DNA of 64,000 bases from Rhodococcus pyridinivorans (GTDB lineage: Bacteria > Actinomycetota > Actinomycetes > Mycobacteriales > Mycobacteriaceae). The stretch covers positions 2,790,001 through 2,854,000 of the forward strand of contig NZ_FNRX01000002.1 of the NCBI RefSeq assembly GCF_900105195.1, read 5' to 3'. The translations under genes were made by a program, and so were the position numbers. Shown here piece by piece: positions 11,486 to 15,949 of this stretch. The notes under the pieces were generated by a model, which saw nothing but the letters and a program-made list of their open reading frames with translations, searched no databases and was not told where the DNA came from. Position 1 is the stretch's first letter. Every line of letters starts with the position of its first letter.

Positions 11486-11866
11486 ATGTCCGTGACCGAC
11501 CGTCACCACACTGCGGCGGACGCGCCGTCGACACAGGCCGCCGCCGATTTGGCCGACCTGCGTGCCGAACTCGACGACATCGACCGGACCCTGCTCGACG
11601 GGATCCGCGCCCGCCTCGAGGTGTGCGGACGCGTCGCCGAACTCAAGCAACGCCACGGCCTCGACGTGCTGCAACCCGGCCGCATGGAGGTCGTGCACCG
11701 CCGCGCCCAGGACTACGCGCACCGGCACGGCCTGTCCGGCGACTTCGTGCGCTCGCTGTACACCCTGCTCATCGACGAGGCGTGCCGGGTCGAGGACCGC
11801 ATCGTCTCCGGCGGCGCCCCCGCGGACCGGGTCGGCTCCGGTCGCCGCGGCGACGGCACGAACTGA
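11486..11866 (+). CDS. papB: 4-amino-4-deoxychorismate mutase (PapB-like chorismate mutase)
   Basis: 126 aa; ATG 11486 is preceded by AAGGGGG. AroQ-type all-helical mutase: LRAELDDIDRTLLDGIRARLEVCGRVAELKQ (about 25-58) holds the conserved helix-1 pattern, with the arginine and lysine expected at the active site, and the later HRRAQDYA and LYTLLIDEACRVED helices complete the fold. Because the next genes are PapA and PapC homologues, the substrate is inferred to be 4-amino-4-deoxychorismate, rearranged to 4-amino-4-deoxyprephenate, rather than chorismate. It is the first gene of a four-gene operon; its stop is 8 nt before papA. An ordinary chorismate mutase is the alternative, made unlikely by context. 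Confidence 0.85.
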   Translation: MSVTDRHHTAADAPSTQAAADLADLRAELDDIDRTLLDGIRARLEVCGRVAELKQRHGLDVLQPGRMEVVHRRAQDYAHRHGLSGDFVRSLYTLLIDEACRVEDRIVSGGAPADRVGSGRRGDGTN

Positions 11867-11874
11867 GGCCCGTC

Positions 11875-14046: not shown

Positions 14047-14957
14047 CCACGCCCGGCCGGGTGATCGTCGCCGGCGGATGCGGCGCCGTCGGCGCCCTGC
14101 TCACCGCCGCGCTGCGCGAGGCCGGCCGTCAGGTGCTCGTCGTCGACCCGGCCGCCGCCCCGGCTGCACCCGGGATGCTGCGCGCCGATCTGACCGCCCC
14201 CGACACCCGCCTCGCCGCGGCACTCGACGGCGCCGACATCGTGGCCCTCGCCGTCCCCGACGTCGTCGCCGGTGCCGCCCTGCCGGTGCTCGCGCGGCTG
14301 CTGCCCCCGCACACCCTACTGGTAGAGACCCTGTCGGTGAAGACCCCGATCGCCGCGGCGCTGCACACCTACCGGCCCGGCGCCCCCACGCTCGGCATCA
14401 ACCCGATGTTCGCCCCCGATCTCGGATTGCCCGGCCGACCCGTGCTGACGGTGCGCCACCACGACGCACCGGTCGTGACCGAGTTCGTCGCGGCGCTGCG
14501 CGACTGGGGTGCCACCGTGGTCGAGACCACCGCCGACGAACACGACCGCATCACCGCCGCCGTGCAGGTGCTCACCCACGCCGCGATCCTCGCGTTCGGT
14601 ATCGCCCTCGACCGGCTCGACGTGCCGGATGCCGCCGCGCGGGTCGCCGCGCCCCCGCACACCGTGCTGCGCGCGCTGCTCGCCCGCGTCTCCGGTGGCA
14701 CCGCCGAGGTCTACCACGACATCCAGCTCACCAACCCGTACGCCGCCACCGCCCGCCGCGCCCTCGCCGGCGCGGTCGCCGATCTCGACGCCGCCACCGA
14801 CGCCCTGCCCGACTTCGCGGCGCTGCTCGACCGGGCCCGCGCCGCGCTCGGCGACGGGCAACCGGCCGCCGCGCAGCTGTGCGGGCAGCTGTTCGCGGCA
14901 CTGCCCCGCGATCCGGGCGCGGTCGGCGGTCCGAGCGAGGAAAGGAGCCGGACATGA
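14043..14957 (+). CDS. papC: 4-amino-4-deoxyprephenate dehydrogenase (PapC, TyrA-like)
   Basis: 304 aa from GTG 14043, overlapping the papA stop as GTGA. N-terminal Rossmann motif GGCGAVG (10-17), then ETLSVKT (about 95-101) and a helical C-terminal dimerisation domain with QVLTHAAILAFG, all typical of prephenate dehydrogenases. It is predicted to decarboxylate and oxidise 4-amino-4-deoxyprephenate to 4-aminophenylpyruvate with NAD(P)+. The family motif HPMFGP reads NPMFAP here: Asn120 replaces the histidine that in TyrA contacts the ring hydroxyl, which might fit an amino substrate (inference). No aminotransferase follows, so a housekeeping one would make p-aminophenylalanine. It ends in an ATGA overlap with the N-oxygenase. 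Confidence 0.88.
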   Translation: MTTPGRVIVAGGCGAVGALLTAALREAGRQVLVVDPAAAPAAPGMLRADLTAPDTRLAAALDGADIVALAVPDVVAGAALPVLARLLPPHTLLVETLSVKTPIAAALHTYRPGAPTLGINPMFAPDLGLPGRPVLTVRHHDAPVVTEFVAALRDWGATVVETTADEHDRITAAVQVLTHAAILAFGIALDRLDVPDAAARVAAPPHTVLRALLARVSGGTAEVYHDIQLTNPYAATARRALAGAVADLDAATDALPDFAALLDRARAALGDGQPAAAQLCGQLFAALPRDPGAVGGPSEERSRT

Positions 14958-15949
14958 ACGAATCCGACATCCCCGGCCCGCAGCTGCGCGCGCCGGAACT
15001 CCCGCAGTACGACCCGTCCGATCCGGCGGAGAGCGCGGTGATCGCCGGGCTGACCCGCTCGTGGCCGCGCCGCGCCGCCGTCAAGAAACCCGAGGTCGAC
15101 CTCGACGCGCTGTTCGAGGCGGACCGCGCCGACTATCCCGAGCAGATGCTGCCCTTCGCCGAGCATCCGCGTTATCTCGCGCTCGACGAACAACAACAGG
15201 CGCGGCTGCGGGCCTGGGCGTGGATTGCCTACAACAAGAGCGTCGTCGACATCGAACAGCACGTCGTCAACCCCGGCTTCGCGTTGATCACCGAGGACGC
15301 CTTCGGTATCGGCCCGTCCGACACGGTGGTCACCGGGGTGCTCCAGGCGATGGTCGACGAGCAGTACCACACCCTCATGCACCAGCAGGCCAACGTGCTC
15401 ACCCGCCGCCGCCGCGGCTGGGCGCTGAAGGAGTCGGTGCTGCCGCCGTGCCCGACCGTGCGCGAGCATCGCGCCGCGGTCGCGCACGCCGAGACCCCGC
15501 GGGACGCGGCGCTGGTGCAGCTGGCGTTCACCACCGTTGCAGAGACTTCGATCAGCGCCTATCTGGCGTTGCTCACCACCGACCCGGAGCTGCAACCGGT
15601 CAACCGCGCGACGGTGGCGGTGCACCGCCGCGACGAGCTGTGCCACGCCTCCCTCGCGGGTGGGCTGCTCACTGCGGTGCTCACCGAACTCGACGACACC
15701 GATCGGGTGCGGCTGCTCGACGCGCTTGGTACCGCGGTCGCGGCGTTCACCGGCGCCGACACCTCCACCTGGGCGGCGATCATCGCGCGCGAGAACATCC
15801 CCGGCGGCGACGAGTTGGTCGCCGACACCATCGCCGTGACCGAGGGCCGGCCGGTGGTGCAGGACTGCAGCGCCATCCGCCGGCTGTGCGCGGGACTGGG
15901 GCTCGGGGAGGAACTCGACGCCCGCTGGCCGTGGCCGCGCAGCGCCTAG
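14954..15949 (+). CDS. AurF-like diiron arylamine N-oxygenase
   Basis: 331 aa, close to AurF (336). ATG 14954 overlaps the papC stop, with AAAGGAG upstream. All seven expected diiron ligands are present, almost at AurF numbering: Glu101, Glu136 and His139 (DEQYH), Glu197 (VAET), His224, Glu228 and His231 (HRRDELCH). Known members oxidise aryl amines to hydroxylamine, nitroso or nitro groups: AurF on p-aminobenzoate, CmlI in chloramphenicol synthesis, ObiL in obafluorin synthesis. With papABC immediately upstream, the substrate is inferred to be 4-aminophenylpyruvate, p-aminophenylalanine or a peptide-bound form. The stop codon lies inside the first copy of a 23-bp tandem repeat. Confidence 0.88.
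   Translation: MNESDIPGPQLRAPELPQYDPSDPAESAVIAGLTRSWPRRAAVKKPEVDLDALFEADRADYPEQMLPFAEHPRYLALDEQQQARLRAWAWIAYNKSVVDIEQHVVNPGFALITEDAFGIGPSDTVVTGVLQAMVDEQYHTLMHQQANVLTRRRRGWALKESVLPPCPTVREHRAAVAHAETPRDAALVQLAFTTVAETSISAYLALLTTDPELQPVNRATVAVHRRDELCHASLAGGLLTAVLTELDDTDRVRLLDALGTAVAAFTGADTSTWAAIIARENIPGGDELVADTIAVTEGRPVVQDCSAIRRLCAGLGLGEELDARWPWPRSA

What the first reader, a model, noticed from the sequence alone, without database searches (positions are those of the whole stretch)
11486..15949. papBAC plus AurF-type N-oxygenase operon inserted between rbpA and ppm1
Seen: four genes with 4-nt or 8-nt spacing encoding a chorismate mutase, fused PabA-PabB, a TyrA-like enzyme and an N-oxygenase with all seven diiron ligands at AurF-like positions. 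Known: papABC make 4-aminophenylpyruvate/p-aminophenylalanine, and AurF-like enzymes oxidise aryl amines (CmlI, ObiL). In M. tuberculosis rbpA and ppm1 are neighbours. Inference: a compact, possibly undescribed rhodococcal route to a 4-hydroxylamino- or 4-nitro-phenylalanine-type building block. No aminotransferase, halogenase or tailoring enzyme is present, so the N-oxygenase may act on a free keto acid or on a carrier-bound residue.
Basis: partly seen in the sequence, partly recalled or inferred. Interest (0 to 1): 0.78.

Follow-up and report, generated by a model that had tools for sequence, protein, structure and literature searches.

The report
Nitro-amino-acid operon beside humimycin-type synthetase
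A four-gene operon seen in many Rhodococcus genomes looks built to make an amino- or nitro-phenyl building block from chorismate, probably for a lipopeptide made by the giant synthetase encoded beside it, although in the horse pathogen R. equi the matching genes were published as ordinary aromatic amino-acid enzymes.

Summary
The four genes are as described (papB, papA, papC, CmlI-type N-oxygenase; 11486-15949). A giant minus-strand NRPS fills window 2-9160 and runs on outside it (7346 aa, six modules, C-starter, TE). Its N-terminus matches that of the Prescottella equi NRPS beside the same operon. That NRPS has the humimycin A module and epimerase order, with MbtH, lnt and amidohydrolase beyond it. 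This NRPS type is found in 95 of 109 genomes with the N-oxygenase and in 2 of 292 without. Residues argue for 4-amino substrates: PapA Lys (51 of 52), PapC Asn for TyrA His (69 of 69), PapB lacks Glu (43 of 43). Best reading: the operon supplies 4-amino- or 4-nitro-phenylalanine to this lipopeptide NRPS. In R. equi the matching genes REQ23860-23830 were published as chorismate mutase, anthranilate synthase, prephenate dehydrogenase and hypothetical protein; two are needed for macrophage growth (PMC2947987). No held paper has both 'humimycin' and 'chorismate'. The modified residue, its oxidation state and the NRPS link are inferred. New variant of a known kind.

The parts
11486..11866 (+). papB-like AroQ chorismate mutase (4-amino-4-deoxychorismate mutase, inferred)
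   Evidence: CM_2 67.3 bits; Met where three aligned solved mutases have Glu; Met/Val/Ile in 43 of 43 relatives
11875..14046 (+). papA: fused glutamine amidotransferase and aminodeoxychorismate synthase
   Evidence: TIGR00553 pabB 378.6 over cut-off 328.4, trpE_most 309.9 under 517.7; best solved relative 8hx6 '4-amino-4-deoxychorismate synthase' 797 bits; PIKGT Lys in 51 of 52
14043..14957 (+). papC: TyrA-like dehydrogenase (4-amino-4-deoxyprephenate dehydrogenase, inferred)
   Evidence: PDH_C 26.1 bits over 22; Asn120 at the His of TyrA in 69 of 69 loci and 119 of 120 listed database relatives
14954..15949 (+). CmlI/AurF-type diiron N-oxygenase
   Evidence: AurF Pfam 163.7 bits; best solved relative 5hyg 229 bits (CmlI by recall); 41% identity to CmlI stretch, 34% to AurF stretch, seven ligands kept
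2..9160 (-). N-terminal 3053 aa of a 7346-aa six-module NRPS (C-starter ... TE) that continues left of the window; start 9160 chosen, not proven
   Evidence: Condensation 4, AMP-binding 3, PP-binding 2 stretches; whole gene read on the chromosome
10831..11226 (+). rbpA, flank; probably the old neighbour of papB
   Evidence: RbpA 140.8 bits; rbpA-papB-papA in 14 of 14 split-locus Rhodococcus s.l. genomes tested
16041..16817 (-). ppm1-like glycosyltransferase, flank
   Evidence: Glycos_transf_2 124.5 bits
16817..18556 (-). lnt-like gene (name recalled), flank; relatives also flank the P. equi NRPS
   Evidence: relatives in L252
18442..20052 (-). amidohydrolase-like gene (name recalled), flank; relatives also flank the P. 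equi NRPS
   Evidence: relatives in L252, L253, L254

Best explanation
The operon is the building-block arm of a lipopeptide locus. PapA makes 4-amino-4-deoxychorismate from chorismate and glutamine, PapB rearranges it to 4-amino-4-deoxyprephenate, and PapC oxidises and decarboxylates it to 4-aminophenylpyruvate. A housekeeping aminotransferase gives 4-aminophenylalanine. The CmlI-type enzyme oxidises the aryl amine, most likely to nitro, on the free acid (as ObiL does) or on the carrier. The NRPS of the humimycin/IupU family encoded nearby loads the product at one or more positions so far assigned as Tyr or Phe; in the window it has six modules, acyl-X1-Ser-X3-D-Thr-X5-X6. Shown: genes, residues, synteny, co-occurrence, NRPS architecture. 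Inferred: every chemical step, the residue that carries the group, its oxidation state.
For: PapA passes the aminodeoxychorismate-synthase model and not the anthranilate models shown; signature residues of PapA, PapB and PapC point to 4-amino substrates; the genome has its own TrpE, PabB and TyrA; the N-oxygenase is nearest to CmlI with all ligands. An adenylation domain lies in 52 of 56 long Rhodococcus s.l./Antrihabitans loci against 7.1% of random 21-kb windows of the own chromosome. The C-starter type of this NRPS is in 95 of 109 N-oxygenase genomes and 2 of 292 others. The P. equi NRPS beside the operon has the humimycin A order and neighbours. PapABC with ObiL or NO16 gives p-nitrophenylalanine in E. 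coli (PMC12631008, passages).
Against: 14 of 109 N-oxygenase genomes lack the C-starter orthologue, ten of them in one genus that includes Gordonia, and Gordonia loci have no adenylation domain within reach (0 of 5). G076 has the NRPS without the N-oxygenase. In R. opacus, strain P-2 and G292 the humimycin-type NRPS is not beside the N-oxygenase. The iupU mutation had no reported effect on virulence while the papB and papA orthologue mutants were attenuated in macrophages (PMC2947987). The DA(L/F)F adenylation codes are common elsewhere and do not name the substrate. Relatedness of the genomes inflates the co-occurrence.
Confidence: 0.6

Rival explanations
1. The genes are redundant aromatic amino-acid enzymes (chorismate mutase, anthranilate synthase, prephenate dehydrogenase) that raise Phe/Tyr/Trp supply, as published for R. 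equi.
For: Published reading, with attenuated macrophage growth of the two mutants (PMC2947987, passages; repeated in PMC6852188, passage).
Against: PapA is under the anthranilate-synthase cut-offs shown and over the PabB one; PapC lacks the TyrA His in 69 of 69; separate TrpE, PabB and TyrA exist; the mutants grew normally in broth; a diiron N-oxygenase overlaps papC by 4 nt.
Confidence: 0.06
2. The operon makes a free amino- or nitro-phenyl metabolite (for example 4-nitrophenylpyruvate or a derivative) that is not loaded by the neighbouring NRPS.
For: Gordonia keeps the operon without this NRPS; iupU mutation and pap-orthologue mutations differ in reported phenotype.
Against: Adjacency to some NRPS in 52 of 56 long loci over several arrangements; genome-level co-occurrence.
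Confidence: 0.2
3. The N-oxygenase works late, on the carrier-bound residue or the finished peptide, so that the NRPS loads 4-aminophenylalanine; or it stops at hydroxylamine or nitroso.
For: CmlI, the closest solved relative, is recalled to act late; AzoC makes a nitroso product (abstract of PMC6783550 in the listing). G042 keeps rbpA-papB-papA-papC (L246) and the C-starter orthologue but no N-oxygenase, so the amine alone may be loadable. A3 has Glu at code position 331 in 14 of 14 six-module NRPSs read from N-oxygenase genomes and Ala in G076.
Against: ObiL, another family member, takes the free keto acid and amino acid (PMC12631008); the Glu/Ala contrast rests on one genome.
Confidence: 0.25

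Closest known systems
Chloramphenicol pathway: papABC and CmlI of Streptomyces venezuelae (recalled; CmlI structure 5hyg)
   Same: Same enzyme kinds; N-oxygenase closest to CmlI among solved structures
   Different: Here one four-gene operon next to a multimodular C-starter NRPS; N-oxygenase only 41% identical to the CmlI stretch
Obafluorin ObiL and engineered PapABC + NO16 route to p-nitrophenylalanine (PMC12631008, passages)
   Same: Same chemistry proposed: 4-aminophenylpyruvate or 4-aminophenylalanine to nitro
   Different: Sequences of ObiL and NO16 were not compared here; no lipopeptide NRPS in that engineered route
AurF, p-aminobenzoate N-oxygenase
   Same: Same fold family and diiron ligands
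   Different: 34% identity; NCBIfam AurF model 176.8 bits against a cut-off of 620
Humimycin A / IupU NRPS of R. equi (PMC5550956, PMC12024397, PMC2947987, passages)
   Same: P. equi NRPS by the operon has the same module and epimerase order and the described neighbours; window NRPS has an orthologous C-starter, 57% over 460 aa
   Different: Window NRPS has six modules, not seven; synthetic humimycins carry Tyr/Phe and no nitrogen group
R. equi REQ23860-23830 (PMC2947987, passages)
   Same: Same gene order by description and by the P. equi locus L051
   Different: Published as aromatic amino-acid enzymes and a hypothetical protein; the 103S sequence itself was not compared here

Membership tests
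papABC route to 4-aminophenylpyruvate | Aminodeoxychorismate synthase with amidotransferase | tested here: met
   TIGR00553 378.6 over 328.4; TIGR00566 156.6 over 121.05; PIKGT Lys 51 of 52
papABC route to 4-aminophenylpyruvate | AroQ-type mutase altered near the 4-substituent (site role recalled) | tested here: met
   CM_2 67.3 over 27; no Glu in 43 of 43 where three solved mutases have Glu
papABC route to 4-aminophenylpyruvate | TyrA-like enzyme altered at the His that meets the 4-hydroxyl (role recalled) | tested here: met
   Asn 69 of 69, 119 of 120; own TyrA has His
papABC route to 4-aminophenylpyruvate | Product 4-aminophenylpyruvate | not testable with these tools
   needs enzyme assays
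CmlI/AurF arylamine N-oxygenases | AurF Pfam family and seven diiron ligands | tested here: met
   163.7 bits over 29.6; 44 of 44 aligned keep the ligands
CmlI/AurF arylamine N-oxygenases | Oxidation of an aryl amine | not testable with these tools
   needs assay
AurF proper (p-aminobenzoate N-oxygenase) | NCBIfam NF045603 cut-off | tested here: not met
   176.8 bits, cut-off 620
Humimycin/IupU NRPS | Orthologous C-starter domain | tested here: met
   57% over 460 aa; other condensation stretches of more than 200 aa are 25-28%
Humimycin/IupU NRPS | Seven modules with epimerases after modules 3 and 5 | tested here: not met
   Window NRPS: six modules, one epimerase after module 4; P. equi NRPS meets it
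Aromatic amino-acid or folate genes | Housekeeping signatures and main copy in the genome | tested here: not met
   separate TrpE 917.5 over 693 and PabB 601.1 over 383; TyrA with His

The most novel reading that the evidence does not exclude
The true products of the humimycin/IupU NRPS family carry 4-nitrophenylalanine (or 4-amino- or 4-hydroxylamino-phenylalanine) at positions that the synthetic humimycins fill with Tyr or Phe. The R. equi genes published as chorismate mutase and anthranilate synthase, which follow the vap pathogenicity island and are needed in macrophages, would then serve this metabolite rather than aromatic amino-acid supply.
Probability: 0.5. Interest if true: 0.87.

Novelty: new variant of a known kind. 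Interest (0 to 1): 0.74.

Why it matters
It joins three loose ends. (1) Humimycins were synthesised from predicted sequences with Tyr/Phe; the locus suggests that nature may use an N-oxidised phenylalanine, and PMC5550956 itself asked whether the real product is further modified. (2) The R. equi mutant phenotype was explained by amino-acid supply; the enzymes look like pap enzymes. (3) A short, widely kept pap + N-oxygenase cassette is a source of enzymes for p-aminophenylalanine and p-nitrophenylalanine. Each point can be tested by deletion and mass spectrometry in non-pathogenic strains.

Tried and rejected
Considered and dropped: folate or tryptophan supply; AurF-type nitrobenzoate formation (AurF model far under its cut-off; no lyase in the four-gene operon); naming the residue from adenylation codes alone (the DA(L/F)F type is common in other NRPSs, and the tree gave no clade that joins the pap-side NRPSs of all groups read); an MbtH gene near the window NRPS (none by motif in the 60-kb region; one in P. 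equi; one search printed nothing because its patterns were too narrow). Glu331 in A3 is only a hint, since it rests on one genome without the N-oxygenase. Structure prediction was not run: sequence fixed the families, and a model would not settle the substrate. ObiL, NO16 and S. venezuelae PapABC sequences were not obtained.

Limits of the counts; the 56 long loci leave out 8 short contigs of the 64 Rhodococcus s.l./Antrihabitans loci; long Gordonia (0 of 5), Streptomyces (0 of 7) and Nocardia (0 of 1) loci have no adenylation domain at the threshold used; group labels were set by hand. One search lists 120 of 234 hits and one search lists 120 of 473; one search keeps 80 of 127. Searches scored only the best few candidates per genome (five and four at most), so absence there is not proof; absence of the N-oxygenase was repeated with all first-look candidates scored for seven genomes. 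The one PapA exception and one PapC exception (P0234) were not followed up. The papA search outside the papC-aurF locus covered 14 of 23 such Rhodococcus s.l. loci and one Gordonia, which had none at E<=1e-100.

Full report
Observation. Pfam and NCBIfam support each name. The window lies in a 5.26-Mb genome; the closest named N-oxygenase is from Rhodococcus pyridinivorans, 98% identical.

What the enzymes are. PapA scores over the aminodeoxychorismate-synthase model TIGR00553 and under every anthranilate-synthase model among the best 25 of 46 shown. It carries Lys in PIKGT in 51 of 52 relatives, while the genome's TrpE reads PIAGT and its PabB PIKGT. Its best solved relative is 8hx6, named 4-amino-4-deoxychorismate synthase. 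PapC has Asn where the aligned solved TyrA (2pv7) has His in HPMFG: 69 of 69 loci and 119 of 120 listed database relatives, some of them named 4-amino-4-deoxyprephenate dehydrogenase by one source. The genome's own TyrA has His. PapB has Met, Val or Ile in 43 of 43 where the three aligned solved mutases have Glu. That these three positions tell 4-amino from 4-hydroxyl substrates is recalled, not computed. The genome also has a separate TrpE and PabB. The N-oxygenase is 41% identical to the CmlI stretch and 34% to the AurF stretch, and keeps all seven ligands (that 5hyg is CmlI is recalled, the table prints 'Uncharacterized protein'). The two other AurF-family proteins of the genome give no significant match to it (best stretches 21-23% identity, E 0.26 and 3.2).

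Conservation. The N-oxygenase is in 17 of 18 genomes of the genus; in G007 it comes as two pieces, and the one without it, G009, is 75% complete. It is in 109 of 401 family genomes at E<=1e-70. Of 80 named loci, 43 have papB-papA-papC-aurF together, 26 have papC-aurF without papBA in place (two of these, L036 and L046, are short contigs), and the 11 Streptomyces and Nocardia loci have no papC hit, though eight of the 11 have papA just after aurF. In 14 of 14 split-locus Rhodococcus s.l. genomes tested, of 23 such loci, papB-papA stand just after rbpA elsewhere. So rbpA-papB-papA is probably the old arrangement and the operon no recent insertion.

The missing partner. The minus strand of the window's first 9.2 kb is an NRPS. 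Read through on the chromosome it has 7346 aa from the chosen start: C-starter, A1, A2, A3, A4 with epimerase, A5, A6, TE. Codes by motif anchors (GrsA numbering recalled) are DAFFTAAIVK, DVWHFSLVDK (Ser), DAFFVAGIEK, DFWNIGMVHK (Thr), DAFFAGAIMK, DAFFLAAIMK (Ser and Thr assignments recalled). An adenylation domain lies in 52 of 56 long Rhodococcus s.l./Antrihabitans loci, against 7.1% of random 21-kb windows of the own chromosome.

Link to humimycin. In P. equi (L051 with L120) the NRPS beside the operon reads C-starter-A, C-A(Ser), C-A-E, C-A, C-A(Thr)-E, C-A, C-A-TE. This is the order of humimycin A, Tyr-Ser-D-Tyr-Phe-D-Thr-Val-Val (PMC12024397, table passage). Past it lie an MbtH-like gene, lnt and the amidohydrolase. 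[quoted passage not shown] PMC2947987 (passages) gives IupU as REQ23810 and the neighbouring genes as REQ23860 (chorismate mutase), 23850 (anthranilate synthase), 23840 (prephenate dehydrogenase) and 23830 (hypothetical protein), conserved at the same place in environmental rhodococci. That these equal papB, papA, papC and aurF rests on order and neighbours in L051; the 103S sequence was not compared. Humimycin-type NRPSs also stand next to rbpA in R. opacus (G207) and in strain P-2 (G097), and beside the end of papA in G292, where papC-aurF or the whole operon stands elsewhere.

Co-occurrence. With the window's C-starter as query (E<=1e-145; the best exponents run 141, 141, 143, then 149, 153), 95 genomes have both, 14 the N-oxygenase only, 2 the NRPS only and 290 neither. 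Ten of the 14 are in genus g9, whose G128 has the coordinates of the Gordonia namibiensis locus L098. Shared ancestry inflates any test on this table, and each search scored only a few candidates per genome. The two NRPS-only genomes are informative. G042 keeps rbpA-papB-papA-papC (L246) without an N-oxygenase at E<=1e-5. G076 has only a 50% papA match, and its A3 code ends in Ala where 14 of 14 six-module NRPSs read from N-oxygenase genomes have Glu. This hints that A3 takes the pap product, but it is one genome, and its A5 code differs too.

Against. Gordonia uses the operon without this NRPS. The iupU mutation is cited as without effect on virulence, while the mutants of the papB and papA orthologues were attenuated in macrophages; this may be assay or redundancy, or may mean that the metabolite acts apart from the NRPS. 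Adenylation codes do not decide the residue; the own genome has 60 adenylation matches in all. No chemistry was tested.

Prior art. A full-text search for papers with both 'humimycin' and 'chorismate' found none, and none of the five papers holding three of six related terms mentions humimycin. PMC5550956 has no occurrence of N-oxygenase, aminobenzoate or chorismate. The library leaves out most subscription journals; the original humimycin paper is not held. PapABC with an N-oxygenase to p-nitrophenylalanine is known from engineered E. coli (PMC12631008, passages). So the chemistry is of a known kind; the tie to this NRPS family and the re-reading of the R. equi genes are what is new.

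Noticed in passing
window 15933-16016: A 23-nt unit repeated 3.7 times (98% matches) runs over the stop codon of the N-oxygenase.
   Followed up: no
window 9291-10289 +: An ORF for a small signal-peptide-like protein lies between the NRPS and rbpA; it looks (by eye) like cluster c27, found at the same place in 8 Rhodococcus loci.
   Followed up: no
G007:C1:2382009-2382988 (L020, L021, L227): In this 4.5-Mb genome the N-oxygenase comes as two pieces in different frames while the other pap genes and the NRPS start look whole; decay or sequencing error.
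   Followed up: partly
own genome C2:1661365-1662186 and C2:1021150-1021974 (L001, L002): Two further AurF-family proteins with all seven ligands but no significant similarity to the operon's enzyme.
   Followed up: partly
L074, L084, L105 (Streptomyces): Relatives of the N-oxygenase stand beside an oxidase-like gene and two ATP-grasp-like genes (named by eye), without pap genes: perhaps another N-oxidised product.
   Followed up: no
L062-L094 loci with papC-aurF only: papC-aurF sits between a ribosomal-protein operon and ABC-transporter genes, a lipase-like gene and an NRPS in many of these loci (families named by eye).
   Followed up: partly
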